Shown here in pieces: positions 10,648 to 29,587 of a stretch of 34,479 bases of DNA. Numbering within the stretch: position 1 is the first letter of the stretch; each line of letters starts with the position of its first letter. The DNA is taken from assembly GCA_030248885.1 (NCBI GenBank), contig JARCMD010000119.1:1-34479 (forward strand), read 5' to 3'. Position numbers and translations under genes: made by a program. The notes beneath the pieces were generated by a model, which worked only from the letters and a program-made list of their open reading frames with translations, made no database searches and was not told the origin of the DNA. Source of the stretch: Leptolyngbyaceae cyanobacterium MP9P1.79 (GTDB taxonomy: Bacteria; Cyanobacteriota; Cyanobacteriia; JARCMD01).

Positions 10648-10676
10648 CATTAGTGCAGCTTCAGTTAGGTGGATTG

Positions 10677-10697
10677 TTTTGAGTTTTGAGTTTTGAG
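10677..10697 (+). repeat. Heptamer repeat (TTTTGAG)x3
   Basis: Three perfect TTTTGAG units. The reverse complement, CTCAAAA, is the same heptamer as at 8110-8278, so one STRR type flanks both ends of the natGH permease pair in opposite orientation. Confidence 0.7.
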
Positions 10698-10808
10698 TGC
10701 TACCCACTTACTTATGTCAGCCTGCGGTAGTATCACCCATCGTTGCCAAGTCTGATGTATTGCAGCCTTCGCCCGACGCATACTACGAACGGCTCTCCCG
10801 ACTTGTCG

Positions 10809-10840
10809 GTGAAAAGAGTATCTCTCGATACTCTTTTCAC
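10809..10840. repeat. Perfect 14-bp stem palindrome
   Basis: GTGAAAAGAGTATC (10809-10822) and GATACTCTTTTCAC (10827-10840) are exact reverse complements around a TCTC loop. On the plus strand it is followed by TCCTGTAAAAATT, so it might act as a terminator or attenuator after natH, though the T run is absent. Confidence 0.75.
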
Positions 10841-10865
10841 TCCTGTAAAAATTCCAGAGTGTTAA

Positions 10866-10904
10866 GGACTCTTGCTGATAAGTGACACTTATCAGCAAGA
10901 GTCC
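10866..10904. repeat. Perfect 39-nt palindrome
   Basis: GGACTCTTGCTGATAAGTG (10866-10884) and CACTTATCAGCAAGAGTCC (10886-10904) are exact 19-bp inverted repeats around a single A. RNA from either strand would fold into a long perfect hairpin. It lies 25 nt after another perfect palindrome. Confidence 0.8.
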
Positions 10905-10937
10905 AGGAGAGATCTACGAACTTGATAAGGTGGGTTC

Positions 10938-11100
10938 TTAGAAGATTTCTGAGAAAGATATGAATGCTGTAGGGACAAAGCATCCGGCAAATAAGCCCTT
11001 GAATCAACAGAAGGTCATTGCCCGGATGCTAAGTGCAAAGCACACGCTACGCGAACGCCCTTCCGGTGCCTGGTATAAATTTTTCTGGAAATCTCCTTAA
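10938..11100 (+). repeat. 163-bp interspersed repeat, copy 1
   Basis: The ends are TTAGAAGATTTCTGAGAA and TTCTGGAAATCTCCTTAA, imperfect inverted repeats. The core AGAAGGTCATTGCCCGGATGC and the block CACACGCTACGCGAACGCCC recur in the copy at 30283-30445, which lies in the opposite orientation. The start of the ATPase reading frame extends into this repeat, which argues for a later true start. Confidence 0.65.
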
Positions 11101-11158
11101 TTGTCATAGCCCTACGTTTAGCAGCCTCCCATCTACCCAAATGTCACAGGACACAACC

Positions 11159-11899
11159 ATGTCAGACTTACCGCCCGTTCTCATCGCTGAAAATGTCCAC
11201 AAATGGTACGGCAAATTCCATGCTCTGCGGGGAGTGTCGCTCACGGTGGACAAGGGAGAAGTGGTCGTATTGATGGGGCCATCGGGATCGGGCAAATCCA
11301 CCTTTATTCGGACGTTCAATGCCTTAGAGGATTATCAGAAAGGACGGATTGAAGTCGATGGCACCGTCTTGGCGCACGACCTGCGGAATGTGGATGTGGT
11401 GCGGCGCGAGGTGGGCATGGTGTTTCAGCAATTCAACCTGTTTCCTCACCTGACCGTGCTGCAAAATGTGACCTTGGCTCCGCGCTGGGTGCGACGCTGG
11501 ACGCAAGCTAAGGCAGAGGAGGTCGCCCTACAATTGCTAGAACAGGTGGGCATTGAGGAGCAGGCGCAGAAATACCCTGGACAACTTTCGGGTGGGCAAC
11601 AGCAGCGGGTGGCGATCGCCCGTGCCTTGGCGATGCAGCCCAAAATTATGCTGTTCGATGAGCCGACCTCTGCCCTTGACCCAGAAATGGTGCGGGAAGT
11701 ATTGGATGCGATGCGATCGTTGGCTCAATCTGGCATGACAATGGTGGTGGTTACTCACGAAGTCGGATTCGCCAAGGAAGTTGCCGATCGTATTATTCTG
11801 ATGGATGCTGGCACCTTGGTTGAAGAAGCGACTCCCACGAACTTTTTTCAAAACCCCCAAGCCGATCGCACCCGCCAATTTCTCTCCCAAATTCTGTAG
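11159..11899 (+). CDS. bgtA: Amino acid ABC transporter ATP-binding protein (BgtA/AapP/BztD family)
   Basis: This 246-residue cytoplasmic ATPase powers amino acid import through NatG/NatH. All nucleotide-binding motifs are present: Walker [10 protein letters not shown] (40-48), Q-loop Gln90 in MVFQQFNLF, signature LSGGQQQR (143-150), Walker B IMLFDEP (163-169) and switch His200 (VVTHE). The length matches the family. ATG 11159 has AGGA 7 nt upstream; ATG 11141 is an alternative, while longer starts run into a repeat element. In Anabaena, as known, BgtA serves both the N-II (NatFGH) and basic amino acid systems. The wide separation from natH here would allow independent expression, consistent with an ATPase shared among transporters. 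That sharing is inference for this organism. Confidence 0.9.
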
Positions 11900-11963
11900 C
11901 CCATCCTGAAATCCCATCCATGCGAAGAACTATAGTTTGGGCTGTCTTCAAAATTTTAACGTT

Positions 11964-12956
11964 ATGATTCATCGCCTAAAACGAGTGTTATCCCGCCTCA
12001 AACTGCCCCGCATTCAATTAGCGAGTTTCTTTGCCGTCATCCTCCTAGGTTTAGTTTGCCTCGGTAGTTTGCTTGTCACCCCTAGGGAACCCGGAAACGC
12101 AACCACCCCTGATCCCCCAGTATGGGTGGCGTTGAATCAGGCTGACATGACTTCCCCGATCGCCGCTAACGATCCCTACCGCATGTTGATTGCGCCTTGT
12201 AAAACAGACAAAGAGGCCCATAGTGAGACAGCGATCCCCACCCAGGTCTTGGCTGCTCAAACGAAGCAAGCCCGTAGCGCCGCTTATGTCCCCCGGCAAG
12301 CCATCGCCCCTGCTTCTCCCACGAATTATGGCTTCCGCTACACCCAGGATATCTACGGCAACCCGCTGACCAATGAGCCGATTATTGTGCTGCACGAAAC
12401 CGTGGGATCAGCCAGCAGCGCCCTTAACCTGTTTCGGACTCCCCACCCCCGCGATGAAGACCAGGTGAGTTACCACAGCTTGATCGCCGCAGATGGCACC
12501 ATCATCTACGTTGTGCCGCCTGACTACAGAGCCTTTGGAGCCGGCAACTCTGCCTTTAGGGGGTCCAAGGGTGATGAAGCAGTGAAGACTAATCCCAAGT
12601 TTTCATCCTCTGTGAACAATTTTGCTTACCACATTTCTCTAGAAACCCCACCTGATGGCGCAAATAACAATCGGGGGCACAGGGGTTACACGACTGCTCA
12701 GTACAAATCCCTGGGTTGGCTAGTTGCAAGAACTGGGGTGTCCGATGCCAGAATTACCAGACACAAAGTTGTCGATCGTTCCAATTCCAGAAGCGATCCC
12801 CGCACCTTTAATCAGCAAAAGTTTCTGAAGAGTCTCCGCAGCTACCCCCGTGTGGATGCGATCGGGTTGAAATGTGCCGTGCTACCCCAAAATCTCAAGC
12901 CTGCACAACATCGCAAACCCAATGCCAACTCCGGCGGCAATGGTGTAGGACAGTAA
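11964..12956 (+). CDS. N-acetylmuramoyl-L-alanine amidase (Amidase_2 type), membrane-anchored
   Basis: This 330-residue protein is predicted to cut the lactyl-amide bond between N-acetylmuramic acid and L-alanine in peptidoglycan. A basic N-terminus and helix at about 17-38 (LPRIQLASFFAVILLGLVCL) form a signal anchor, followed by a Pro/Thr-rich linker. The amidase_2/PGRP-type domain runs from about 120 to 295. The zinc ligands appear to be His144 (IVLHETVG), His267 (ITRHKVVD) and Asp278 (NSRSDPRTF). The supporting motif VSYHSLIAADGTI is typical. ATG 11964 is chosen over an upstream TTG at 11937 because it starts with a basic n-region. It follows the ATPase gene by 64 nt and may be co-transcribed. 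A role in wall turnover or cell separation is likely, but the exact substrate is unproven. Confidence 0.85.
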   Translation: MIHRLKRVLSRLKLPRIQLASFFAVILLGLVCLGSLLVTPREPGNATTPDPPVWVALNQADMTSPIAANDPYRMLIAPCKTDKEAHSETAIPTQVLAAQTKQARSAAYVPRQAIAPASPTNYGFRYTQDIYGNPLTNEPIIVLHETVGSASSALNLFRTPHPRDEDQVSYHSLIAADGTIIYVVPPDYRAFGAGNSAFRGSKGDEAVKTNPKFSSSVNNFAYHISLETPPDGANNNRGHRGYTTAQYKSLGWLVARTGVSDARITRHKVVDRSNSRSDPRTFNQQKFLKSLRSYPRVDAIGLKCAVLPQNLKPAQHRKPNANSGGNGVGQ

Positions 12957-13524: not shown

Positions 13525-15633
13525 TTAAAGATGGCTCTGATAGGGGTTGGTGAGTTTGCCTAACTGTTGGGTAAGCAAGCTGAGGAATAGACCCACATCG
13601 GTTACTACACCCACAGATTCGATCGAGCCACGATCGCTCAGCTTGGTCACCACCGCTGGATTAATGTCCACACACACCATCTTTACTCCCGCCGGGGTCA
13701 TATTGCCCACACCGATCGAGTGCAGCATCGACGACAGCATCAGAATCAGGTCAGCCCCTTGGATCAGGTGAGCATAGTCGGCTTGGGCTTCCAGCAGATC
13801 CATTTCGGTGTCAGGCAGGGGCCCGTCGTCGCGGATTGAGCCAGCGAGGGAAAACGGCACATTATGACGAACGCACTCGTAGAGTACGCCACTGGTGAGG
13901 ACTCCTTGCTCCACCGCTTGAGCGATACCGCCACAGCGCCGAATCGTGTTGATTACCTTCAGGTGGTGGCGGTGACCGCCTTGGACAGAGACTCCACGCT
14001 TCATATCCATGCCCAGGGAAGTGCCCATAATGGCTTGCTCAATGTCGTGGACGGCGATCGCATTGCCGCCCAGCAACGCCTGCACATAACCTTCCCGAAT
14101 CAGCTTCGCCAAATGTTCGCCGCCGCCGGTGTGAATCACCACGGGCCCCGCTGTCACAACCACCTTGCCGCCCTGATCCCGAATCTGACGCAATTCCCAA
14201 GCAATTTGCTCGACCACCAGTTCCACCCGGCGTTCACTGGAAACCCCCGATCCCATGAAGCTAAACTCTTGGGTGTTGCGCTGTTCCCGTGATTCCACCT
14301 TCCGCACCGTGCGGATGCCCTCCACACCAACAACGACTCGATCGTCCACCTGCAAATCTCGCAGCAACTTACACTCTGCCATCAGCCCTTGGGGAGTCTG
14401 CGCCACCACGATCGCCGCATCCATTCGCTGCGCCTGCACCTTCACCCACTGATCCTGGACGCGCACCTCTGTTGGATAAATCGTGGTTCCATAAAAATCT
14501 TCGGGAGCTACACCTGTCTGAACACAGACCTCTAGGTGAACGTCGCAAATCTCTTGGGGTGGCGGTACAGCACCCAAGTCGATGAGTTGCACCATAATCA
14601 ATTCCATGATTTCGTGGGAGGGCGCAGACACCTTCACATCTGCGGCCGAGGTGCTTTGCCGCTGCTCTCCCAGGTTGAAGTTCAGCACCTGAAAGCTGCC
14701 TCCCGCTTCCACCACTACATCCAGCGCTTGATTGATTAACCCAGAATCCAACAGGTGACCTTCCAAGCGAATGGTGCGGCTCTCGACAGCGGCGATCGCC
14801 CTCACCTCAGACACCACTGGCTCCGTCACCCGCAGAGTGAGACATTTCGCCGCGCCCCCCGCTTTCAGAAACTCGGTCAGGGGCGTTTCCACAATTTGAA
14901 ACCCAACCTGGGTGAGACGCTGGCGCAACTCATCACTCACTTTGTTGACAATAACGATCGATCCCACGTTGACAGCATTACAGGCGAAGTTGACTGCATC
15001 CAGTTCGCCGATCGCAATTCGCTTCGCCCCTGGCACCCGCATTTCAATCAAGCGATTGGAGTAACCATCAAAGGCAGGCGGGTAGTAGAGCAAGTAGCCA
15101 TCTTGCAGAGGACAAAAACACGTATCCAGGTGATAGAAGCGCTCATCCATTAGCCGCAAGGACAGCACCTCTGTATCCAACCATTCTGCCAAATAGGGGT
15201 GGGAATCCAGCTCAGAGCGAAAGCCATACCCCGCCCACAGCCAGCGCCCTTCCCGATCGAACAGAGCATCTCCCGCCCCTTCAAAGGGTAAATCTTTCGG
15301 CAACTCGTAGACCGTGAAGTCTTTTTCCAAGAACCACTCCTTGAAGAAGGGTTCTTCGCCCTGCCGTTCTTTGTGGTAAAAGCGACTCAGAACCACCGTT
15401 TTGCCCAACACCAACCCTGCGTTAGCCGTGAACACCATATCTGGCACTCCTTTCTGGGGAGTTACGAGATCCACAATGGCGTGTTCCTTCAGCACATGAA
15501 AGAGTTGCTGCCACTGCTCTGCGGCGCGATCCTGGGATGATTTGTGAATATTTCCTTCCATCCACGGATTGATTACATAATCCACATCGTAGTGATCAGG
15601 AGGGCACATTAAGAAACGCATTGAGGAGTTCAT
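13525..15633 (-). CDS. argZ: Arginine dihydrolase / bifunctional ArgZ-AgrE
   Basis: This 702-residue protein belongs to the cyanobacterial ArgZ/AgrE family. Its N-terminal amidinotransferase-fold domain (about 1-285) hydrolyses arginine to ornithine, CO2 and two ammonia in the cytoplasm. The start RFLMCPPDHYDVDYVINPWMEGN is diagnostic. Candidate active-site residues are Asn22, Asn71, Glu118 (PFEGAGDAL), His168 (YHLDTCF) and Cys264 (AAKCLTLRV). With the ATG at 15633 the Glu, His and Cys numbers agree with those I recall for Synechocystis ArgZ, which supports this start. The C-terminal half (about 290-702) is the LOR/SDH-like region that gives AgrE its ornithine cyclodeaminase (proline-forming) activity, with NAD-binding segments such as GGKVVVTAGPVVIHTGGGEH. 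An upstream ATG at 15705 lies within a repeat element and is unlikely. It suggests use of arginine or cyanophycin nitrogen. Confidence 0.9.
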   Translation of the reverse strand: MNSSMRFLMCPPDHYDVDYVINPWMEGNIHKSSQDRAAEQWQQLFHVLKEHAIVDLVTPQKGVPDMVFTANAGLVLGKTVVLSRFYHKERQGEEPFFKEWFLEKDFTVYELPKDLPFEGAGDALFDREGRWLWAGYGFRSELDSHPYLAEWLDTEVLSLRLMDERFYHLDTCFCPLQDGYLLYYPPAFDGYSNRLIEMRVPGAKRIAIGELDAVNFACNAVNVGSIVIVNKVSDELRQRLTQVGFQIVETPLTEFLKAGGAAKCLTLRVTEPVVSEVRAIAAVESRTIRLEGHLLDSGLINQALDVVVEAGGSFQVLNFNLGEQRQSTSAADVKVSAPSHEIMELIMVQLIDLGAVPPPQEICDVHLEVCVQTGVAPEDFYGTTIYPTEVRVQDQWVKVQAQRMDAAIVVAQTPQGLMAECKLLRDLQVDDRVVVGVEGIRTVRKVESREQRNTQEFSFMGSGVSSERRVELVVEQIAWELRQIRDQGGKVVVTAGPVVIHTGGGEHLAKLIREGYVQALLGGNAIAVHDIEQAIMGTSLGMDMKRGVSVQGGHRHHLKVINTIRRCGGIAQAVEQGVLTSGVLYECVRHNVPFSLAGSIRDDGPLPDTEMDLLEAQADYAHLIQGADLILMLSSMLHSIGVGNMTPAGVKMVCVDINPAVVTKLSDRGSIESVGVVTDVGLFLSLLTQQLGKLTNPYQSHL

Positions 15634-19928: not shown

Positions 19929-20930
19929 TTAACCTCTGAGCGCTTTGGAAAATTGAATTTCCGATCGCCTCACATCTTGGAACAGATCCGCATCTTCCAT
20001 GTGAAATGCACAAATATCACAATACTGTCGTCCCATTCGTCCTGAAAAATAGGCATGAATTTCTTCAAGCGTATCTGAGTTATCAGTCTGTGTTGACAAC
20101 ATCAAATCGCCAAGATTATCGTAAATCAACAAATACTTATAGTTGAGTTCTCTAAACAGTTCAAAAACGAGCAGATTGTTGTCATTTTGCTGAGCCAAAA
20201 AGAATGGATCATACTCAAAAAACACAATTGGCTTTGCACTCACCAGAAAGTCGATCGCTCCCCGCAAGATTTTGCAATCGAAACCATCCGTATCAATTTT
20301 GATCATCTTAGACACCAAGAAGCTAGGTCGTTCCTGCAAAACATCAGATAGCCTTTCAATTTTGATCATCACGTCTGATGTTTGATCTAAACTCGCTTGA
20401 TTGGCATCTTGATTGATGTGAGCAGTCCCACCATCTCGACTAATCAAACTTTTGATCTCCAACGTTGATTCACCCACATAACACTTGGCAAGCTCAACAT
20501 CTGTGAATAGAGCTTTGTTGCCTTCTAAAATTGGATAAAATTGCTCATCTCCCTCAATACAAAGGATGGGAAAATAAACCTCCTTTCTCAGCAGGGCGAT
20601 CGAATCTCCAATATTTGCCCCCACATCAATAAACCTTAAATCCTCATATTTTTGCTTAGCATGTCTAGCAATTCTCACTAAATTCAGAGAGTAATAAGGA
20701 TACTTCTTAAGAATAAATGGTAATTGGTGGGAAAGCGGAATTGATAGGGGAAAGCCTCCAACACTATAGGTAACAAGTGGGTCATTGAAACTCTCAACCA
20801 TCACTGTGAGTAGTCGATTAAAAATTTTCGTCTTGAATCTATCCATGGGACTATTGACTGATGCATTTAGAACTTGCCCATGTATAGTCTGAGCAAAGTC
20901 ATGCATTAGTGTTTTTTGCGGTTCTTTCAT
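19929..20930 (-). CDS. FkbM-family SAM-dependent methyltransferase
   Basis: This 333-residue protein has the FkbM methyltransferase fold. SAM-binding motif I is FIDVGANIGDS (100-110), motif II includes CIEGDEQFYPILEGN (124-138), and the family-typical KIDTDGFDCKILRGA is at 211-225. Members methylate sugars or natural-product hydroxyls. In surface-polysaccharide loci they modify glycans. It follows, on the same strand, the Wzt-like ATPase gene, which makes a glycan substrate the best guess. A probable terminator lies between them, so co-transcription is doubtful. No glycosyltransferases are in the window. The Shine-Dalgarno sequence is not evident. It reads more A/T-rich than dnaG, in common with the neighbouring transporter gene, as is usual for surface-polysaccharide genes. 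Confidence 0.85.
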   Translation of the reverse strand: MKEPQKTLMHDFAQTIHGQVLNASVNSPMDRFKTKIFNRLLTVMVESFNDPLVTYSVGGFPLSIPLSHQLPFILKKYPYYSLNLVRIARHAKQKYEDLRFIDVGANIGDSIALLRKEVYFPILCIEGDEQFYPILEGNKALFTDVELAKCYVGESTLEIKSLISRDGGTAHINQDANQASLDQTSDVMIKIERLSDVLQERPSFLVSKMIKIDTDGFDCKILRGAIDFLVSAKPIVFFEYDPFFLAQQNDNNLLVFELFRELNYKYLLIYDNLGDLMLSTQTDNSDTLEEIHAYFSGRMGRQYCDICAFHMEDADLFQDVRRSEIQFSKALRG

Positions 20931-21013
20931 TGTTTGGAGGAGAAAATTTTATGAGATTTCATACCTACGTCGCGCTTCTCTAATTAGCCTTCCCTAATCT
21001 ATTAGCTTTCTTT

Positions 21014-21035
21014 AAGAAAGGCTCATTTCTGAGCC
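21014..21035 (-). terminator. Probable terminator of the Wzt-like gene
   Basis: On the minus strand this reads GGCTCA-GAAA-TGAGCC followed by TTTCTT, a 6-bp stem closed by a GNRA tetraloop with a pyrimidine run. A second short stem overlaps the run. It lies between the wzt-like stop and the fkbM start. Confidence 0.55.
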
Positions 21036-21175
21036 ATAACATTTAAAGGATTCCACATTAAGGTGTTTCTTAATCTTGCACTATAGATAAAAGAGGTTGA
21101 GTGGGTTTTGCCTAGAGAAATGAAAGCTTCTATAATCGAACAATTAACTCATGATTAACTGTTGAAACCTATGCG

Positions 21176-22447
21176 TCATAACTCCGTCTCTACACTCCAT
21201 TGACAGTTGGCAAATACACAACCGTAATCCATACCTTCATACAGTGAAAACTCAGAACCCCTGTCAGTAATTGTAAACTTACAAGCACCTTCTATTAGAT
21301 CAAACATTTGAACGTTAGGAACAGAGACAGCTAGCATGAATGTGTATTGTCCAGGAGTCAAAAGGTTTTTAGGCAGCATAACTTTAGCGACGAAGCTATC
21401 CTCTCGTATCCTCGAAATCAGTTTGCTTAATAAGACTTCACTCGTGAAAATTTTGCGATCGTATTGATCCGTCAGCACGATCGCCAGAACGACATCACTG
21501 TTAAATCGATTGACGTTGTAATGTATTTCCAATTGAACTTGTTCGTCATGACCAAATTCTGAAGTAGAAAGACCAGCAACATTCGTAGTAATCGCCTTAC
21601 CAATATAAATATCTTTTCCTGAGCAATCTAAGTTCAACGCAATAAATTGATTGCTCTCCCCAAAAGTGACTTTCTGCATATAGGCTGCAATGACTTCTTT
21701 GATGTCTCCTTGCTCTGAAATTTGTCCTTTTTCTAACAGAATTCCTTGATTACATAGCTTGGCGATGGTACCCATTTGATGACTCACAAAAACTACCGTT
21801 CTGCCTTCAGAACTTACATCTTTCATCTTCCCCAAACACCGTTGTTGAAACTTGCTATCGCCCACCGCTAGGACTTCATCAACAATTAAAATTTCGGGTT
21901 CTAAATGAGCCGCAACCGCAAATGCAAGGCGAACATACATCCCTGATGAATAGCGTTTAACAGGTGTATCCAAGAATTTTTCTATTTCTGCAAACTCGAC
22001 GATTTGATCGAATTTCGACCTAATCTCCACCCTACTCATGCCAAGAATAGCACCATTGAGATAAATGTTTTCCCGCCCGCTGAGTTCCTGGTGAAAGCCT
22101 GTGCCCACTTCTAAAAGACTGGCGACCCGACCTTTAATTGCAATAGAACCCGCTGTTGGTTCTGTGATTCGGCTCAAAATTTTGAGTAGGGTAGATTTTC
22201 CTGCCCCATTATGGCCAATAATCCCAATCCGATCGCCCTGTTTAATTTCAAATGACACATCTTTAAGTGCCCAAAATACTTCTTGGTCTCGACTAATCTT
22301 GTTTTCACCAAGCGGTTGCAGCAACGTTTGCCTTAGATTAGTTGCAGCTTGTACGATCGAATCTTGCAACGTTTTATAAGCCTGTCGTTGACGACCGATC
22401 GCATATTGTTTACTTAAATTATTAACTCGAATTGCCGTATCAGACAT
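21176..22447 (-). CDS. Polysaccharide ABC transporter ATP-binding protein (Wzt-like)
   Basis: This 423-residue cytoplasmic ATPase is of the type that exports O-antigen, capsule or teichoic-acid-like glycans. Walker A is GHNGAGKST (78-86), the signature is YSSGMYVRLAFA (166-177), Walker B is ILIVDEVLAVGD (186-197) and the switch is His223 (FVSHQ). The short 20-residue insertion before Walker A and the RVASLLEVGTGFHQELSGRENIYLNG block are typical of the Wzt/TagH/KpsT-like group. Residues about 265-423 form a C-terminal beta-rich domain resembling Wzt carbohydrate-binding domains, which read the modified end of the glycan. The partner permease (Wzm) is not next to it: upstream lie 816 bases without a gene and then an unrelated kinase. 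The neighbouring FkbM methyltransferase might supply a terminal methyl mark. Confidence 0.88.
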   Translation of the reverse strand: MSDTAIRVNNLSKQYAIGRQRQAYKTLQDSIVQAATNLRQTLLQPLGENKISRDQEVFWALKDVSFEIKQGDRIGIIGHNGAGKSTLLKILSRITEPTAGSIAIKGRVASLLEVGTGFHQELSGRENIYLNGAILGMSRVEIRSKFDQIVEFAEIEKFLDTPVKRYSSGMYVRLAFAVAAHLEPEILIVDEVLAVGDSKFQQRCLGKMKDVSSEGRTVVFVSHQMGTIAKLCNQGILLEKGQISEQGDIKEVIAAYMQKVTFGESNQFIALNLDCSGKDIYIGKAITTNVAGLSTSEFGHDEQVQLEIHYNVNRFNSDVVLAIVLTDQYDRKIFTSEVLLSKLISRIREDSFVAKVMLPKNLLTPGQYTFMLAVSVPNVQMFDLIEGACKFTITDRGSEFSLYEGMDYGCVFANCQWSVETEL

Positions 22448-23263
22448 AATTAAAAGCTCTACCTCAACGACATCGTTAGTTAATTAATCAACGTGACTTC
22501 CTAACATTGACGCTAAACCATATCAGCAAATGCGGAAGTATTAGACACCGATCATCAACACCACTTCTATAAGTGCCATTAAAAGGGTGTGATCAAAAGT
22601 GATGGCGATGTTTTTTCAAAAATCCTGCAAGGTATCATGCATGTCAATAACGACATGGACAAGAGTATGCCCTGAATTGGGAAAATGATAATCACTTGCG
22701 ATCATCTCAAACTCTCAACCCAAGCATCTTCGCATGGGGTTTTCAGGGATTGTTTTGATTTAAGACATTTGGTAATTATATTCTCAACACCACGCTTTTC
22801 TGTAAGGCTGTCTTGAATTCCATAAGAGGCTATTTGAAAAGCTAACCCCCACCAAATTTTTCCTAGTCGAAACGTTAGAAACAATACCTTGTAGATTTAT
22901 CTAAACTTTTGTGACTTTTCAAGGAACTAGTAGGGAGAATGATGGGTTGAATGTGAATTGAGTAACTATCCTCTCTTTTTTGCCTCCTTGCAAGTCCTTT
23001 TGTCCTCCTCGTGAGGAAATTAAGACTTGGTGACAATCACAAAATTGAAGTAGAGTATGAGGCTAATCTCTAGCTAAGTACGATGAGGGAGATAATACTC
23101 CTTAAGCTAGATGAAAAGTGGGTGAAAATACTCGTAAAGCTTCACTGAATCTTAATTTGCAAGGATTAATGTAGAGATGAGAGTATGCCTCGACCTATGA
23201 AGAATTCAATAAATTCTACTCATACCATCAACATCAGTTTCTGATTCATTAAGCGAGATAGCT
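22448..23263. other. 816-base region without a recognised gene
   Basis: This divergent region between the Wzt-like gene and the histidine kinase is A/T-rich with few GCGATCG motifs. A 60-codon open frame at 22702-22884 on the minus strand has no recognisable family. A nested inverted repeat at 22991-23029 (CAAGTC ... TCCTC-CTCGT-GAGGA ... GACTTG) could fold in RNA upstream of the kinase gene. A missing wzm-like permease might have been lost here, but I see no remnant of it. Promoters were not placed. Confidence 0.5.
22991..23029. promoter_or_regulatory. Nested inverted repeat upstream of the histidine kinase
   Basis: Outer arms CAAGTC (22991-22996) and GACTTG (23024-23029) enclose inner arms TCCTC (23003-23007) and GAGGA (23013-23017). 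It lies about 235 nt before the kinase start. It could be a leader-RNA fold or chance; no known RNA family is recognised. Confidence 0.25.
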
Positions 23264-24463
23264 ATGAAGGGTGGCAGGCAAGAACTAAGTTTAAGAGTAA
23301 ATCTATCAGATTACAAACAGGAAAATTGCCACAGTGGTGGTTCCTCCGCACTCCATCCTACTGGTATTAAATCTACTAATGTCAGACCTACTGATAATGT
23401 CAGACCTACCGATATCAGAAGCGTTTGTCAGTTTCAACTGGAGCAATTAGCAGCCCAGTTGCCGACGATCGCCCTCTTGCTGGTTTACCGAGATGAAGAG
23501 AGAAGCCAGCCCCAGTCGGTGAGTTACTACGCCCGTCAACCATCTAGCTGTGACTCGCTTATTTTGTATTGCCTGGAAGCAGAAAGGCAACTGGTGGATG
23601 GATTAGCCCCGTTGCAAGTCAGTGAGTTAGCGGCAGTTGGGAAAGACTATGGCTACATCTGCCCCCTAAGTTCTAACAGGGTAGAGTACTTGCTTCTGTG
23701 TACCTACGGGTCACTCTCTACAAATCAAATCTATCAAATTGAACGCTACGCTCAACTACTGTCCTATGGACTGATAAGCCATCAAGAGCGCTGTCATCAA
23801 CGGGCTAAGATCCAGCTTCTGGAGCATGTGCTGCAACGCACCGAGCATCAGCTTCGTAATCCTTTGGCAGTGATTAATCTATATGCCGAAAACTTGCGGT
23901 TGCAACTGCCCCAAGGCATTCTGCAAGAACAGGTGGAACTCATTCAGAAAACGGCTGGCGACATGAGTAACCACCTCTCCAGTCTAATTTCCTGTGGGCA
24001 ACAGGGAAATCTGCGGATTGGTTTGCATGACCTGAAAGAGATTTGGGTCGAAAGTATCCAGGATCTTCAACCCTGGCTCCAGGAAAAGGAGTTGCAGGTT
24101 CATTACCCCGAATCAACGGTAATGTTGGCGATCGATCGCTGGCAAATGAAGCAGGTACTCAGCAATCTGCTAAACAATGCGATTCACTTTAGTCCATTGC
24201 GAGGAACAATTACCTGTACCTGGCAACAGTTCGGGCAGGAGGTGTTGATCGAAATTGCTGATCAGGGGGTTGGGTTGTCTGAGGCAGATTTGCAACAGGC
24301 CTTCACGCCCTTTTACTCTCGTCGTCCGGGAGGAACAGGGTTGGGATTGTCCATTGCCAAAAAAATTATTCTGGATCATCAGGGACATCTGTGGGCAAAA
24401 AATATTCCTGAGGCTGGGGCCCAGTTTTCATTTACTCTACCCCGCCTAAAAGCTTGTTCCTGA
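23264..24463 (+). CDS. Soluble histidine kinase
   Basis: This 399-residue cytoplasmic sensor kinase has no membrane segment. Residues 1-50 are polar and include a tandem NVRPTD repeat coded by an 18-bp DNA duplication (23378-23395, 23396-23413). Residues about 53-180 form an uncharacterised input region with GAF-like character (QLPTIALLLVYRDEE ... YGYICPLSSNRVEYLLLCTYG). The phosphoacceptor is His195 in RTEHQLRNPL. The HATPase domain shows the N box (LSNLLNNAIHFSP, Asn301/305), G1 (DQGVGL, Asp333) and G2 (GGTGLGLSIAK). All catalytic features are intact. The next gene, 161 nt downstream, is its likely response regulator, and a Pvc16-type gene follows, all on one strand. The signal sensed is unknown. 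Confidence 0.88.
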   Translation: MKGGRQELSLRVNLSDYKQENCHSGGSSALHPTGIKSTNVRPTDNVRPTDIRSVCQFQLEQLAAQLPTIALLLVYRDEERSQPQSVSYYARQPSSCDSLILYCLEAERQLVDGLAPLQVSELAAVGKDYGYICPLSSNRVEYLLLCTYGSLSTNQIYQIERYAQLLSYGLISHQERCHQRAKIQLLEHVLQRTEHQLRNPLAVINLYAENLRLQLPQGILQEQVELIQKTAGDMSNHLSSLISCGQQGNLRIGLHDLKEIWVESIQDLQPWLQEKELQVHYPESTVMLAIDRWQMKQVLSNLLNNAIHFSPLRGTITCTWQQFGQEVLIEIADQGVGLSEADLQQAFTPFYSRRPGGTGLGLSIAKKIILDHQGHLWAKNIPEAGAQFSFTLPRLKACS

Positions 24464-24624
24464 GAGGGCGGTTTTAAGAAAGCTGCGTTAAACACTGAAA
24501 CTGTTCTTTTGTAAAACTTTTTTGGATCAATTCCTCCTGCTTCTGTTGGCTGACGCTTTGACTTGGGAAAACTTTTGCTAGTAGTTAGGAATTCTAAGGC
24601 GAGACTCTTAAGGTGGATAAAAAT

Positions 24625-25302
24625 ATGATTTCAACCCAATCCATCTCTGTGCTTTTAGTGGATGATGAGCCTTGCTTCCGTAAGGGTTTACAGACGCTGT
24701 TAGGGTTTTACAGCACGAATGGTGAGTTAGGCTTTGAGGTTGTGGGAGAAGCGACTTCTGTAGAGCAGGCTTTAAAGGTGGCTGTAGAGCAACGTCCTGC
24801 TCTGATTTTGCTGGATTTGGAGTTGCCCCAAGGAGATGGCATTGGGGTTCTGTTGCGCCTTGCAGAGTTGTCCTATCGAGGTAAGGTCATTGTGCTGTCG
24901 GGGCATCGAGAGGATGAGTGGGTGTTTCGAGCGATGCAGGCTGGGGCCTGTGGGTATATTTTTAAGGACTGTGTGGCAACCCAACTCTACGAAGCCATCA
25001 AGATTGTGATCAATAATGAAATTTATCTGGCTCCTGATGTGGCAACGCGCTTTTTTCGCCTGTTCCATTTCTATGCAGGGCATTCTCTCCAAGCTCAGCA
25101 CGCGATTTACTTGACGGAGCGAGAGCGGGAAGTGCTGCATTGGCTGGTTCAGGGAGCGTCTAATGAACATATTGCTAGCCATCTCTACATTACGATCGCT
25201 ACGGTCAAGGCTCACTTGACGGCAATTTTTGAGAAGCTGAAGGTGACCAGTCGCACTCAGGCGATCGTCAAAGCCCTCAAGCTTGGCTTAGTCTGTGCCT
25301 GA
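24625..25302 (+). CDS. NarL/FixJ-type response regulator
   Basis: This 225-residue DNA-binding regulator is the likely partner of the preceding kinase. In the receiver domain (about 7-130), the acidic pocket is Asp13/Asp14 (LLVDDEP), the phosphorylated residue is Asp64 (ILLDLELP) and the conserved Lys is Lys114 (YIFKD). The LuxR/NarL helix-turn-helix is at about 160-220 (LTEREREVLHWLVQGASNEH ... ITIATVKAHLTAIFEKLKV). ATG 24625 is chosen because AAGGTGG lies about 9 nt upstream; a GTG at 24613 is in frame but lacks a site. It likely activates transcription, and the adjacent Pvc16-like gene is a candidate target or co-transcribed partner. A small hairpin covers its stop codon. Confidence 0.92.
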   Translation: MISTQSISVLLVDDEPCFRKGLQTLLGFYSTNGELGFEVVGEATSVEQALKVAVEQRPALILLDLELPQGDGIGVLLRLAELSYRGKVIVLSGHREDEWVFRAMQAGACGYIFKDCVATQLYEAIKIVINNEIYLAPDVATRFFRLFHFYAGHSLQAQHAIYLTEREREVLHWLVQGASNEHIASHLYITIATVKAHLTAIFEKLKVTSRTQAIVKALKLGLVCA

Positions 25303-25317
25303 TGATGGGTTCATCAG
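25299..25317 (+). terminator. Small hairpin over the response-regulator stop codon
   Basis: CTGATGA (25299-25305) pairs with TCATCAG (25311-25317) around TGGGT, and the TGA stop is inside the stem. A TTGTCTCTT stretch follows. It could weakly attenuate transcription into the Pvc16-like gene 60 nt on; it is weak evidence. Confidence 0.3.
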
Positions 25318-25362
25318 TTGTCTCTTACTCCTAATCAATCTCTATCCACTAATTAGTAACTG

Positions 25363-26625
25363 ATGAGCAATTATCTAGCGATCGCTACAGTCACCGCGAC
25401 CCTGCAACGACTTTTACAGAGTTCGATTCAGGCTGATGTGGATGGCTCCAGGGTGACAACCCTGCGTCCTGACAAGCTCGGCAGCAGTGGAACTCCTGAA
25501 GCCGGAGTAAATCTCTATCTCTACGATATTTTGTTGAATATTGCTCGCCGTAACAGCGATATTGCCGGCCGCTACCACGAGCAGGGTTCAGCAAAACGTC
25601 CCCATTCCGCCGTAGACCTTTACTACTTGGTCAGTTGCTATGGCAATGACAATGAACTCGAACCTCAGCGCTTGTTGGGAAGTGTGATTCGTACCTTCAC
25701 CACCTATCCCACGATTACCCCTGAGATGGTGCGGGAGGCGATCGTTGATCCTGTTTACAACTACTTATCTGAGTCCAATGTCGCCGATCAGCCTGAACCG
25801 CTTTCCGTCTCCTGCATTGACTTGGGGATCGAAGACTTATCCCGGATTTGGTCGGTCTTTTTTCAGACCCCCTACATTCTGACCACGGCCTACAAAATTA
25901 GTGTGGTGACGATCGAAAGTGACATTATGCCTAAGAAGTCCTTGCCTGTTCGCAATATTCAACAGCGTCTGATCCCCAATCAACCACTGATTGAAAAACT
26001 CATGGCGGTTCAGGAAGGGGACGCTTCCCAGTGGCGCACAGAACCAGGACAGTTGTTCGTGTCCACCAGCACGGTTATTATTCGGGGCAAGCAATTGCGA
26101 GATGAGGTCACCCAGGTGCGGGTGGGAGAGGCAAAGGTGGTTGTCCAAGAGGTCAGCCCTAATCAAATCAATCTGTCTCTAGCTTCTGTGCCGGTTGAGG
26201 CGCTACAGGCAGGGGCGCAAAGCCTCCAGGTCATCCATCCCAATCGCGGCAGTGAGTCTAATGTGATGGCGTTTGTGTTGCTGCCAGTGCTGATGGATGT
26301 GGCGGTGAGCCATGTGGAAGCGGAGAGCAGTGAGGGGCGATCGGCTGAGGTGACTGTGCAAGTTAGCCCCAGGGTCGGAAAATCCCAGCGGGTCGTTCTC
26401 ATACTCAATGAAGCCTCGCTGGATAATCCAGAAGCGTACACGTTTACTGTTCTACCTCCAGAGGACAGTAGTGCCACTCTATCGACAATCATTACAGGGG
26501 TTAAACCTGGTAGTTATTTAGTGCGACTCCAGGTGGATGGAGCGGAAAGTTTGCTGGCAGTGGATATGGATAGCGACAGTCCTACCTTTGACCAATACAC
26601 GGGGCCAATTTTGCACATTTCATAG
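25363..26625 (+). CDS. Pvc16/DUF4255-family protein (contractile injection system cap-type)
   Basis: This 420-residue protein has an N-terminal DUF4255 (Pvc16_N) domain at about 6-195, with the family-typical order YLAIATVTATLQRLL, GVNLYLYDILLNIARRN, VDLYYLVSCYGND, RLLGSVIRTF and SRIWSVFFQTPYILTTAYKISVV. In phage-tail-like contractile injection systems this domain belongs to the protein that caps or terminates the tail tube and sheath. Residues about 205-420 are beta-rich. They contain an IPT/TIG-like stretch (VSTSTVIIRGKQLRDEVTQVRVG) and a second Ig-like segment, seen in the longer cyanobacterial forms. It is co-directional with a kinase and regulator pair, but no sheath, tube, baseplate or AAA+ gene lies next to it. 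The following gene is convergent, only 10 nt away. It may be an orphan, or work with a cluster elsewhere. Confidence 0.83.
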   Translation: MSNYLAIATVTATLQRLLQSSIQADVDGSRVTTLRPDKLGSSGTPEAGVNLYLYDILLNIARRNSDIAGRYHEQGSAKRPHSAVDLYYLVSCYGNDNELEPQRLLGSVIRTFTTYPTITPEMVREAIVDPVYNYLSESNVADQPEPLSVSCIDLGIEDLSRIWSVFFQTPYILTTAYKISVVTIESDIMPKKSLPVRNIQQRLIPNQPLIEKLMAVQEGDASQWRTEPGQLFVSTSTVIIRGKQLRDEVTQVRVGEAKVVVQEVSPNQINLSLASVPVEALQAGAQSLQVIHPNRGSESNVMAFVLLPVLMDVAVSHVEAESSEGRSAEVTVQVSPRVGKSQRVVLILNEASLDNPEAYTFTVLPPEDSSATLSTIITGVKPGSYLVRLQVDGAESLLAVDMDSDSPTFDQYTGPILHIS

Positions 26626-26635
26626 GGGGCATGTC

Positions 26636-29587
26636 TCAGCTTAAAAGCGAGGGGTTCAGACGGGGAGCAAGGTTTGGGAGATTGGCCAGCGAGAGCGATT
26701 TTTGTTGATGACTACAGAGGAATTGGGTAGCTAGTTCCGCAGAGAGGGGCGGGCTGAATAGGTAGCCTTGAATTTCTGTGCAGTGGAGCGATCGGAGCAA
26801 GTCTAGCTGGGTCTGGGTTTCCACTCCCTCTACCACAACCGTTAAATTGAGTCCACGTCCCAGAGTCAGGATGGCACTGATGATAGCGGCATCTTCTGAG
26901 CCAGCAGCCAAATCCTTGACGAAGGATTGATCGGTCTTGAGGGTGTGTAGGGGAAATTTCTTTAAGTATGCTAAAGAGGAATAACCAGAGCCAAAGTCGT
27001 CCATGGCAATTTGCACTCCCATTTTCCGGAGGCTTTGCAGCATATCACTAGCAAACGTCACGTTCTGCATCACCATGGTTTCGGTGATTTCTAGCTCTAA
27101 ATATTGCGGGTCTAACCCTGTGTCTGCCAATGCTTTGGCAACTTGCTCAACGAGGTTGGGTTGCTGGAATTGGCGGGCTGAGAGATTGACAGAGATGCGG
27201 AGTTTGGGAAGTCCCTGGTCTTGCCAGAGTTTGTTTTGGGCGCAGGCGGTTTGCAGAATCCACTCCCCGATCGGCACAATCAGTCCGTTTTCTTCAGCTA
27301 AGGGAATGAACGTTCCTGGGGAAATGAGACCGATTTCTGGGTGTTGCCAACGCACCAAGGCTTCCACACAGCCGACCTGGTGGGTGTGAATATTGACTTG
27401 AGGTTGGTAGTGGACAACAAATTCCCGGCGCGCCAGGGCGTGGTGCAGTCGGTTTTCCAAAGCTAGTAGCTCTGAGGCTTGGAAGTTGATGTCTGGGGTG
27501 TAGAGTTGATAGCTATTGCGTCCCTGTTCCTTGACTCGATATAGGGCGGCATCGGCGTGTTTCAACAGGGTTGGGACATCTTTGCCATGGTGCGGATAGA
27601 GGGCAATGCCAATGCTGCTGGTGATATAAAGCTCGTGTCCTTCTAGGTGAAATGCGGGTTTGAGCGCACTCAAAATGCGCTGGGCGATCGTCGTCACATC
27701 GTCTAACTCAATAATATCTGGCAGGAGCAATGTAAACTCATCGCCGCCCCACCGAGCCACCAAATCTCCCTCGCGGAGGCAATCAGTCAACCGTTCAGCA
27801 ACGTATTGCAGAAGTTGATCTCCGATCGCATGTCCTAGAGTGTCATTGATCGTTTTGAAGCGGTCTAAATCCAAAAACAGAACAGCTAGCATTTGTTGAT
27901 GACGACGGGCGCTGCTGATGGCGGCGGGGAGCCGATCGCTGAACTGCACTCGGTTGGGTAAGCCTGTCAGCAAGTCGTGGTGGGCCTGGTAGCGAATGGT
28001 TGCCTCGGCGATCTCGCGCTTCAGGGCCCCGCCAATGCTGGCAGCCATGGCAATTAAAATTGACTTTTCGCTTTTGAACCAGTGGCGATCGGGACGGGAA
28101 TCATCAAACCCCACCCAGCCCCAAAACTGGTCATCGATCAACAGAGGCACCATCAGTAGAGAGAAAATCCCATAGTGTTGCAACATTCCTTGGCTAGCTA
28201 GGGGAAATTCGTCCACTGTGGCACTGACCGAAATTCCCTTGGCTAGGGTGTCATACCAGTAGCATTCAGGAGCGGCGGCGGCATCTGGGTCATTGGGTTG
28301 CAGAGTTTTGAGACTGGTGTAAATTTGCTCCTGCACATCGGGGCGCTTGAGCAGGGGCGCGATCGGGGGGCGAGTCCATTCAAATCGCATCTGGACAGGC
28401 ACTTTACCCGAACCCAGGAGGGAAAGATTTTCGTAGATGTAGACGCGATCGACATTGGCGGCAATTCCCAGAGTGGCGAGGGCTTGGCCGATCGCCTGAT
28501 CACAGTGGGGATTTGTCAGCAGATAGTGGGTTGCCTCCGCCACACCCTGCAACAACTGATCTCGCTTGTGGAGTTCAGCTTCGGCTTGCTTCCGCACGGT
28601 GATATCTTCCACTGTGCCCTCGTAGCCCACAAGTTGCCCGCTGGAGTCTCTGATGGTGCGCGCATTTTCCGAGATCCAAATCACCACTCCATCCTTGCGA
28701 TAGATTTGAGACTCGAAGCTCCTCACGGCATCCTGTGATCGCAGCAGTTCCCGAAACTCGGTGCGGCGATCGGGATCAACGTATAACTGGTGTTCAATGT
28801 CCGTCAGAGTGTTCATCAACTCATCTGGAGAGCCATAACCATAGATCTTCGCCAGCATTGGATTGGCGGCTAAATAGTGCCCCTCTGCTGAGGTTTGAAA
28901 AATCCCCTCGACTGCATTTTCAAAAATGCTGCGATATTTTTGCTCCTCTCGGCGCAGAGCAACTTCAACCCTGCGCCGCTCATGCATTTCGATCGACAGC
29001 GACACAAAATCTGCCATTGAACTCGCAAAGTTCTGCTCTTCTAAGGTCCACTGGCGGGGGGAACAGGTTTGCTCATGACACACAACGCCAATGGTTTGCC
29101 CGGCGCGACGAATGGGGGCAGCCAGGAGAGAGGTAATACCCAGAGGCCGCAAGTAGTCCGTCAGAAAGTCTTTGGTGCGGGGATCGATGCAGGCATCATG
29201 GGCGGCGATCGTCCGGTCTTCCTCTAAGGCGGTGAAGTAAGCAGGATGATCAGCAATGGCGATCGTTAGCCCATTCAAATGCACTCCAGTGTTCTGCTGG
29301 AATAAATCAGCACAGAGAATGTCAGTCCGGGCAGCGTTGTAAAGCCACACACTGGCATTTACTTTCAACGTGTGGGCAGCCGCTTCTGTCACATCTCGCA
29401 GGGCGGCGTTCAAATCACCTCGGTTAGTCGCTTGCTTTCTGGCAAGTTCCACCAGCACCTTGTTTTGCTGCCGGAGTTGTCTCTCACTGTCTCGCAACGC
29501 TTTGGCAGATTGGCGATTGGATTGGTGAGGAGGTTCGAGGCGTTCTGGAGAATTCAACGTTTTGACAAGTTCTAACGGGTTCAACAT
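26636..29587 (-). CDS. GAF-PAS-GAF-GGDEF-EAL cyclic-di-GMP signalling protein
   Basis: This 983-residue soluble protein makes and/or degrades cyclic di-GMP. A short coiled coil (about 25-55) is followed by a GAF domain (about 57-200), a PAS/PAC (about 213-335), a second GAF (about 345-525), GGDEF (about 530-700) and EAL (about 708-960). The cyclase site is intact (GGDEF at 614-618), with an inhibitory RxxD site REGD five residues before it. The phosphodiesterase motifs are also intact: EAL (742-744), NLSARQF, ELEITET, DDFGSGYSSLAYL, KTDQSF, EGVET and QGYLFSPPL. Either or both activities are possible. In its GAF domains I do not see an obvious bilin-binding Cys-His motif, so light sensing is not supported. 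It is transcribed alone. Confidence 0.93.
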   Translation of the reverse strand: MLNPLELVKTLNSPERLEPPHQSNRQSAKALRDSERQLRQQNKVLVELARKQATNRGDLNAALRDVTEAAAHTLKVNASVWLYNAARTDILCADLFQQNTGVHLNGLTIAIADHPAYFTALEEDRTIAAHDACIDPRTKDFLTDYLRPLGITSLLAAPIRRAGQTIGVVCHEQTCSPRQWTLEEQNFASSMADFVSLSIEMHERRRVEVALRREEQKYRSIFENAVEGIFQTSAEGHYLAANPMLAKIYGYGSPDELMNTLTDIEHQLYVDPDRRTEFRELLRSQDAVRSFESQIYRKDGVVIWISENARTIRDSSGQLVGYEGTVEDITVRKQAEAELHKRDQLLQGVAEATHYLLTNPHCDQAIGQALATLGIAANVDRVYIYENLSLLGSGKVPVQMRFEWTRPPIAPLLKRPDVQEQIYTSLKTLQPNDPDAAAAPECYWYDTLAKGISVSATVDEFPLASQGMLQHYGIFSLLMVPLLIDDQFWGWVGFDDSRPDRHWFKSEKSILIAMAASIGGALKREIAEATIRYQAHHDLLTGLPNRVQFSDRLPAAISSARRHQQMLAVLFLDLDRFKTINDTLGHAIGDQLLQYVAERLTDCLREGDLVARWGGDEFTLLLPDIIELDDVTTIAQRILSALKPAFHLEGHELYITSSIGIALYPHHGKDVPTLLKHADAALYRVKEQGRNSYQLYTPDINFQASELLALENRLHHALARREFVVHYQPQVNIHTHQVGCVEALVRWQHPEIGLISPGTFIPLAEENGLIVPIGEWILQTACAQNKLWQDQGLPKLRISVNLSARQFQQPNLVEQVAKALADTGLDPQYLELEITETMVMQNVTFASDMLQSLRKMGVQIAMDDFGSGYSSLAYLKKFPLHTLKTDQSFVKDLAAGSEDAAIISAILTLGRGLNLTVVVEGVETQTQLDLLRSLHCTEIQGYLFSPPLSAELATQFLCSHQQKSLSLANLPNLAPRLNPSLLS

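What the first reader, a model, noticed from the sequence alone, without database searches (positions are those of the whole stretch)
23264..26625. Two-component pair linked to an orphan injection-system cap protein
A soluble histidine kinase, a NarL-type regulator and a Pvc16/DUF4255 protein lie on one strand in one probable unit. No sheath, tube, spike, baseplate, AAA+ or DUF4157 gene is in the following 8 kb, which is housekeeping and c-di-GMP coding on the other strand. Either this unit controls a contractile injection system elsewhere, with the cap produced under signal control, or the Pvc16 protein has been recruited to a separate function. Its beta-rich C-terminal extension could be an adaptor.
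Basis: partly seen in the sequence, partly recalled or inferred. Interest (0 to 1): 0.62.

Follow-up and report, generated by a model that had tools for sequence, protein, structure and literature searches.

The report
Switch for a scattered bacterial syringe
Three genes thought to be stray turn out to be the conserved control half of a cyanobacterial contractile "syringe" whose other genes lie elsewhere in the genome, and three of those distant gene groups carry the same conserved promoter tag, so the control circuit can be tested directly.

Summary
In detail: kinase (23264-24463), NarL-type regulator (24613-25302) and Pvc16_N+TIG protein (25363-26625) lie on one strand, with no injection-machine gene on the rest of the contig. 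The trio is not an orphan. In many cyanobacteria HK-RR-Pvc16 sits divergently beside the cap-sheath-tube operon of a contractile injection system (CIS). In this draft genome that locus is split: cap-sheath-tubes on C137, baseplate on C74, spike on C145, a solitary AAA+ on C445, and the trio in the window. I found a conserved promoter element in these operons: the dyad T(C/A)GAC-N4-G(T/G)C(T/G)A, with a -10-like TAnnnT exactly 38 bases from the dyad's start in 26 of 29 non-redundant cap/sheath leaders. A scan of the window's whole genome gives three hits at one mismatch or fewer; all lead CIS operons (sheath, baseplate, spike). In 22 other genomes all 13 exact hits lead CIS structural operons. 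Best reading: the pair switches on a dispersed CIS in trans, and the Pvc16-TIG protein is a second cap-type component. Binding by the regulator is inferred, not shown, and its co-occurrence with the site follows phylogeny. Geller 2021 already reported regulators and kinases beside such systems; I found no earlier description of the promoter element.

The parts
23264..24463 (+). Soluble histidine kinase, 399 aa: variable N-terminal alpha/beta domain (residues about 51-150, no Pfam match), HisKA (23843-23986), HATPase_c (24140-24445); phosphoacceptor H195
   Evidence: ORF; Pfam; alignment of 20 orthologues with invariant H195 and N305; model; Foldseek matches to histidine kinases
24613..25302 (+). 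NarL/FixJ-type response regulator, 229 aa: receiver (24649-25002, D68) and GerE/LuxR-type DNA-binding domain (25111-25275); proposed activator of the CIS promoters
   Evidence: ORF; Pfam; 49-76% identity among CIS-linked orthologues
25363..26625 (+). Pvc16_N (DUF4255)-TIG protein, 420 aa; proposed second cap (tail-terminator) component of the CIS
   Evidence: Pfam; conserved beside CIS operons; cap fold
25387..25953 (+). Pvc16_N domain (cap fold)
   Evidence: Pfam residues 9-197; Foldseek matches to cap proteins 9qgn, 7b5i, 7adz_0A, 6j0f
26065..26622 (+). C-terminal tandem Ig-like beta-sandwich domains (TIG about 235-294, second about 302-420)
   Evidence: Pfam TIG; AlphaFold2 model with pLDDT about 90-97 over residues 231-420; Foldseek matches to tandem Ig/FNIII proteins
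23190..23205 (+). Possible degenerate half-site TCGACCTATGAAGAAT, 74 bases before the kinase start; second half not conserved, inconclusive
   Evidence: (4 mismatches), sequence
26636..29587 (-). PAS/GAF/GGDEF/EAL protein that lies where many relatives have the AAA+ CIS gene; not part of the unit
   Evidence: comparison

Best explanation
The trio is the regulatory half of a cyanobacterial contractile injection system (closest by sheath to the Streptomyces cytoplasmic CIS) whose gene cluster has been split in this genome. The soluble kinase phosphorylates the NarL-type regulator on an unknown intracellular cue. The phosphorylated regulator binds, as a dimer, the dyad T(C/A)GAC-N4-G(T/G)C(T/G)A. 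The dyad centre lies about 43 bases before the predicted transcription start, next to a TAnnnT -10 box, which is the position of a class II activator. By this it switches on separate operons in trans: cap-sheath-tube (C137), baseplate (C74) and spike (C145). The Pvc16-TIG protein made with the regulator is a second cap-type protein of the same machine, alongside the short Pvc16_N protein that heads the sheath operon. Shown: linkage, conserved residues, folds, the split locus, and the shared promoter element and its genome-wide specificity. Inferred: that this regulator is the binder, that it activates, the transcription start, and the cap role of the TIG protein.
For: Conserved linkage: in 19 of 65 named loci with at least 6 kb of upstream sequence the order is HK-RR-Pvc16, and 17 of those 19 have the sheath operon within 10 kb. 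Own CIS scattered but largely present: sheath (PDB 8bky E 4.8e-115), short cap protein (9gts E 6.4e-18), tubes, gp25, Baseplate_J, Tail_P2_I, CIS_tube, VgrG-like spike, DUF4280, and an AAA+ at 58% identity. Promoter element: found upstream of nearly every cap/sheath operon with a neighbouring regulator, 29/32 against 5/20 without; TAnnnT at offset +38 in 26 of 29 non-redundant sites. Own genome: the operator pattern has one exact match, at the C137 cap/sheath operon; the operator + -10 pattern has two exact matches (C137, C74) and one at 1 mismatch (C145 spike operon, not used to build the pattern). Other genomes: all 13 exact hits lead CIS structural operons, and five VgrG leaders plus an eCIS_core gene appear among the 1-mismatch hits. 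A second split genome (G172) carries the element on its distant sheath, baseplate and spike operons. Four of five genomes with a site but no regulator beside it hold an orthologue elsewhere, three of them with an adjacent kinase.
Against: No binding or expression data. The regulator-site co-occurrence is confounded by ancestry: independent-pair tests have at most 4-7 usable pairs and are not significant, and significance disappears when sheaths are clustered at 75% identity. Three genomes (L107, L108, L118) carry a close orthologous kinase-regulator pair but no site at their sheath, and one (L093) has a site without a detected orthologue. In the own genome the number of hits at up to 2 mismatches (4) is below that of the reversed-pattern control (7), so the case rests on where the hits fall. 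The trio's own leader and the AAA+ gene lack the full element.
Confidence: 0.72

Rival explanations
1. The conserved promoter element is real and coordinates the CIS operons, but another regulator (for instance a global LuxR-type or stress regulator) binds it; the neighbouring kinase-regulator pair is only a linked passenger or regulates something else.
For: Co-occurrence of regulator and site follows phylogeny. Genomes L107, L108 and L118 have the pair without the site, and L093 has the site without a detected orthologue. Other NarL-type paralogues exist in these genomes.
Against: The regulator gene is commonly the gene next to the operator. Pseudanabaena keeps the regulator (without an adjacent kinase) exactly where it keeps a perfect-dyad operator. 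Four of five site-only loci had the orthologue elsewhere in the genome, and G093 has it beside its sheath.
Confidence: 0.17
2. The Pvc16-TIG protein was recruited to a separate function and is no longer a CIS part; the trio is an independent signalling unit.
For: It is separated from sheath and AAA+ in this genome; it carries Ig-like domains absent from the single-domain Streptomyces cap; no sequence match to solved cap proteins at single-sequence level.
Against: Most relatives keep it beside CIS operons. Its N-terminal domain folds like cap proteins. In 23 of 48 sheath loci neither a short cap gene nor an adjacent kinase is in view and this is the only Pvc16 protein seen there. The Anabaena CIS has a two-protein cap, Cis16A and Cis16B (PMC8894136).
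Confidence: 0.12
3. The split is an artefact of a draft or mixed assembly: the genes are contiguous in the real genome or come from different organisms.
For: 552 contigs, about 89% complete; the baseplate and spike operons run off their contig ends at the 3' side.
Against: Window trio, sheath operon and AAA+ gene are each flanked on both sides by unrelated genes inside their contigs, and the 5' ends of the baseplate and spike operons too. Contamination is estimated at 1.41%. Split loci also occur in other genomes, e.g. G172.
Confidence: 0.06

Closest known systems
GerE/LuxR-type regulators and histidine kinases beside eCIS loci (Geller et al. 2021, PMC8213781)
   Different: As far as the text I searched shows, no operator, no promoter spacing and no unlinked operons under one control. 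Here the pair has separated from the operons and the promoter element is retained on them.
Streptomyces coelicolor cytoplasmic CIS (PMC10066040, PMC12237407; PDB 8bky, 9gts)
   Same: Closest solved sheath (E 4.8e-115) and cap (Cis16, 9gts, E 6.4e-18) to this genome's C137 operon; tube, spike, baseplate and AAA+ components also present.
   Different: The Streptomyces cap is one protein; here a second, TIG-bearing Pvc16_N protein exists. Genes dispersed rather than in one cluster.
Anabaena thylakoid-anchored CIS with Cis16A/Cis16B cap (PMC8894136, PDB 7b5i)
   Same: Two cap proteins in one system; fold match of the TIG protein's N-domain to 7b5i.
   Different: Anabaena sheath All3325 is a more distant match (E 1.5e-52). 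The paper text has no mention of a kinase or response regulator.
NarL/FixJ-family response regulators acting as class II activators
   Same: Receiver + GerE domain organisation; a dimeric dyad site next to a -10-only promoter is the expected layout (family knowledge).
   Different: The 14-bp dyad TMGAC-N4-GKCKA and its CIS targets were not found described in the library searched.

Membership tests
Two-component system (soluble HisKA kinase + NarL-type regulator) | HisKA with phospho-His, HATPase_c with N and G boxes | tested here: met
   Pfam; H195, N305 and G-box residues invariant in 20 orthologues
Two-component system (soluble HisKA kinase + NarL-type regulator) | Receiver with phospho-Asp and Lys, plus GerE DNA-binding domain | tested here: met
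   Pfam; D68 and K118 invariant
Two-component system (soluble HisKA kinase + NarL-type regulator) | Phosphotransfer between the pair | not testable with these tools
   Only linkage shown
Pvc16/DUF4255 cap (tail-terminator) proteins | Pvc16_N domain above the curated cut-off | tested here: met
   150.6 bits against cut-off 27
Pvc16/DUF4255 cap (tail-terminator) proteins | Cap fold | tested here: met
   Foldseek: 9qgn_A, 7b5i_AA, 7adz_0A (TMt 0.67), 6j0f_A
Pvc16/DUF4255 cap (tail-terminator) proteins | Located at the distal end of the particle | not testable with these tools
   Needs purified particles
Contractile injection system of the Streptomyces/IId-like lineage | Sheath, tube, cap, baseplate, spike and AAA+ genes in the genome | tested here: met
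   C137, C74, C145, C445:
Contractile injection system of the Streptomyces/IId-like lineage | Structural genes in one cluster | tested here: not met
   Spread over at least five contigs, the 5' end of each CIS operon flanked by unrelated genes:
Contractile injection system of the Streptomyces/IId-like lineage | Sheath closest to that lineage | tested here: met
   8bky E 4.8e-115 against All3325 of Anabaena E 1.5e-52
Anabaena thylakoid-anchored CIS | Cis13 transmembrane anchor and Cis19 crown | not tested
   Not searched
Class II activator regulon of the window's regulator | Shared dyad at fixed spacing to a -10 on the target operons | tested here: met
Class II activator regulon of the window's regulator | Regulator and site co-occur independently of ancestry | tested here: inconclusive
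   29/32 against 5/20 in all loci, but at most 4-7 independent pairs, not significant
Class II activator regulon of the window's regulator | Physical binding of the regulator to the dyad | not testable with these tools
   Needs gel shift or footprint

The most novel reading that the evidence does not exclude
Many cyanobacteria run a contractile injection system as a true regulon: one soluble two-component system reads an internal cue and fires unlinked cap-sheath, baseplate, spike and cargo promoters through one conserved class II operator, so the machine works even after its gene cluster has broken up.
Probability: 0.6. Interest if true: 0.7.

Novelty: new variant of a known kind. Interest (0 to 1): 0.58.

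Why it matters
What controls cyanobacterial contractile injection systems is unknown; even the well-studied Anabaena system has no described regulator in the paper read here. A named kinase, regulator and 14-bp operator with fixed promoter spacing make the question directly testable by gel shift, reporter and knock-out. They also give a DNA signature that finds the scattered CIS operons and candidate cargo genes of a genome without gene linkage: it pointed to the spike operon here and to an eCIS_core gene in a relative.

Tried and rejected
Order-level search held only the own genome. Single-sequence PDB search with the Pvc16-TIG protein found nothing, and a profile search gave only weak cap hits; fold comparison was needed. 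An early guess that the 820-aa protein beside some sheath operons is a baseplate gene was wrong: it matches a PBP-like family and is not a CIS structural gene. Exact-arm dyad counting gave a weak signal (at most 4 sequences); shared k-mers gave the strong one. No full operator was found upstream of the kinase, only a possible half-site. I considered that the motif is itself a -10 element (TCTAAT) and rejected it: the baseplate version reads GCGAAT and the TAnnnT at +38 is conserved in both. Simple sigma-70 and terminator scans of 22400-26700 gave no clear operon boundary. The phylogeny-aware test of regulator-site association lacked power.
Full report
WHAT IS THERE. Pfam gives HisKA + HATPase_c, Response_reg + GerE, and Pvc16_N + TIG. 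Gaps are 149 and 60 bases. The window is the complete contig C361 of a 4.89-Mb, 552-contig draft, about 89% complete. Downstream lie a GGDEF/EAL protein and housekeeping genes on the other strand, as stated. The kinase's H195 and the regulator's D68 and K118 are invariant among orthologues, so both look functional.

NOT AN ORPHAN ELSEWHERE. I fetched 20-kb neighbourhoods of 40 relatives of the Pvc16-TIG protein and 80 named loci from a GTDB species set. The recurring layout is two divergent halves: leftward, a short Pvc16_N gene, sheath, one or two tube genes, a gp19-like gene and two small genes; rightward, kinase, regulator, Pvc16-TIG, then often an AAA+ gene. It occurs in Nostoc, Trichormus, Cylindrospermum, Trichocoleus, Symplocastrum, Acaryochloris, Phormidium and others. 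Of 65 named loci with at least 6 kb upstream, 53 show a sheath gene within view. Of 19 with the exact order HK-RR-Pvc16, 17 have the sheath operon. Pseudanabaena keeps the regulator but has no adjacent kinase.

THE CIS OF THIS GENOME IS SCATTERED. The second Pvc16_N gene heads a cap-sheath-tube operon on C137. Its sheath is closest to the Streptomyces coelicolor CIS (8bky, E 4.8e-115; Anabaena All3325, E 1.5e-52), and its short cap protein matches Streptomyces Cis16 (9gts, E 6.4e-18). gp25, Baseplate_J and Tail_P2_I lie on C74. The AAA+ protein (58% identical to the one next to Pvc16-TIG in a relative) stands alone on C445. CIS_tube, gp19, a VgrG-like spike and a DUF4280 gene lie on C145. Trio, sheath operon and AAA+ gene have unrelated genes on both sides; baseplate and spike operons have unrelated genes at their 5' ends but run off their contigs at the other end.

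A CONSERVED PROMOTER ELEMENT. The intergenic region between the divergent halves shares a sequence far beyond shuffled controls: ten-mers in 16 of 20 regions, against at most 3 in shuffles. It is TCGACCAAAGTCTAATAACC or, in Pseudanabaena, TAGACTAAAGTCTAATAACC, whose first 14 bases are an inverted repeat of TAGAC/GTCTA with four bases between the arms. It points towards the cap/sheath operon, often 72-80 bases before the first codon (longer leaders in Nostoc and some others). In 26 of 29 non-redundant sites a TAnnnT box starts exactly 38 bases after the start of the element; in the other three it is within one base. With a start about 12 bases after that box begins, the dyad centre falls near -43, the place of a class II activator (inference). 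A variant TCGACYTTTGGCGAATAG occupies the same place before gp25 in nine other genomes at 2-3 mismatches to the sheath-type pattern.

THE ELEMENT MARKS THE SCATTERED OPERONS. In the window's genome the operator pattern has one exact match, the C137 cap/sheath operon. The operator + -10 pattern has exact matches only at C137 and C74 and one further match at one mismatch, at C145, which turned out to be the leader of the spike operon. C137 and C74 informed the pattern; C145 did not, and was an independent success (my estimate of a chance hit within 300 bases upstream of that operon: below 1e-4). Fairness: the reversed-pattern control gives 7 hits at up to 2 mismatches against 4 real ones, so it is the location and not the number that counts. 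In 22 other genomes there are 31 hits at up to one mismatch (control 20). All 13 exact hits precede CIS structural genes; of the 30 hits returned as loci, 23 precede CIS structural genes (sheath/cap, gp25, VgrG or CIS_tube) and one an eCIS_core gene. Six genomes with no regulator in view at their CIS locus (G251, G304, G072, G188, G141, G351) gave none; whether they hold an orthologue elsewhere was not tested for all of them. G015 and G236 also gave none. A second genome with a split locus, G172, has the element on its distant sheath, baseplate and spike operons.

IS THE WINDOW'S REGULATOR THE BINDER? The regulator gene lies beside the element in most loci. In loci with the regulator in view 29 of 32 have the element, against 5 of 20 without. 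Of those five, four genomes proved to hold an orthologue elsewhere, three of them with an adjacent kinase. Against: L107, L108 and L118 have the pair elsewhere but no element at the sheath, and L093 has the element but no orthologue found. The presence-absence pattern is clade-bound: too few independent pairs exist for a test, and clustering at 75% identity removes significance. I hold binding by this regulator as likely, not shown.

THE PVC16-TIG PROTEIN. A model built on 48 homologues (mean pLDDT 83) has a cap-fold N-terminal domain (matches 9qgn, 7b5i, 7adz_0A, 6j0f) and two Ig-like domains. The Anabaena CIS cap is made of two proteins, Cis16A and Cis16B (PMC8894136), whereas the Streptomyces cap is one (PMC12237407).

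WHAT IS KNOWN. Geller et al. 2021 (PMC8213781) reported GerE regulators near 25.8% of eCIS loci and kinases upstream of some, and proposed a two-component control. The linkage is therefore known in kind. In the library searched I found no operator, no promoter architecture and no case of control over dispersed CIS operons. Subscription papers and preprints are not in that library.

VERDICT. Interest is moderate to good because it turns an unknown (how cyanobacterial CIS are controlled) into a concrete circuit with a 14-bp operator that standard assays can test.

Noticed in passing
L254 (C145) 11534-12793 -: A sigma-70-family factor gene (regions 1.2, 2, 3, 4) lies directly upstream of the spike operon leader, with the operator between them; possible additional control layer.
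   Followed up: no
L167 (C103) 10119-12530 +: Homologue of an ~800-aa kinase-like/PBP_like_2 protein that sits next to CIS genes in several relatives (such as L087); may be a CIS-associated protein.
   Followed up: partly
L003 (C137) 13849-15201 +: In the window's genome an Amidase_3 + Glucosaminidase protein occupies the divergent position beside the cap gene where relatives have the kinase; a cell-wall lytic enzyme next to a CIS operon.
   Followed up: no
L119, L123, L127-L129, L132, L139-L141, L149: Pseudanabaena-type loci keep the regulator and a perfect-dyad operator but have no adjacent kinase and no short cap gene.
   Followed up: partly
L289 3481-3524 and 3782-5521 +: An operator + -10 match at one mismatch precedes a 579-aa eCIS_core (DUF4157) protein gene, a candidate cargo under the same control.
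   Followed up: partly
L135, L138, L142, L146, L148, L152: Relatives of the Pvc16-TIG protein occur in records labelled as non-cyanobacterial (Gemmatimonadota, Armatimonadetes, Opitutae, Verrucomicrobia, archaea), most of them next to a different sheath type and the AAA+ gene.
   Followed up: no
L090, L091, L092 (between regulator and Pvc16 genes): In Laspinema three or four genes on the other strand lie between regulator and Pvc16-TIG, so the two can be separated.
   Followed up: no
window 19929-22447 -: FkbM-type methyltransferase and Wzt-type ABC ATPase genes, probably surface glycan export, border the trio on the left.
   Followed up: no
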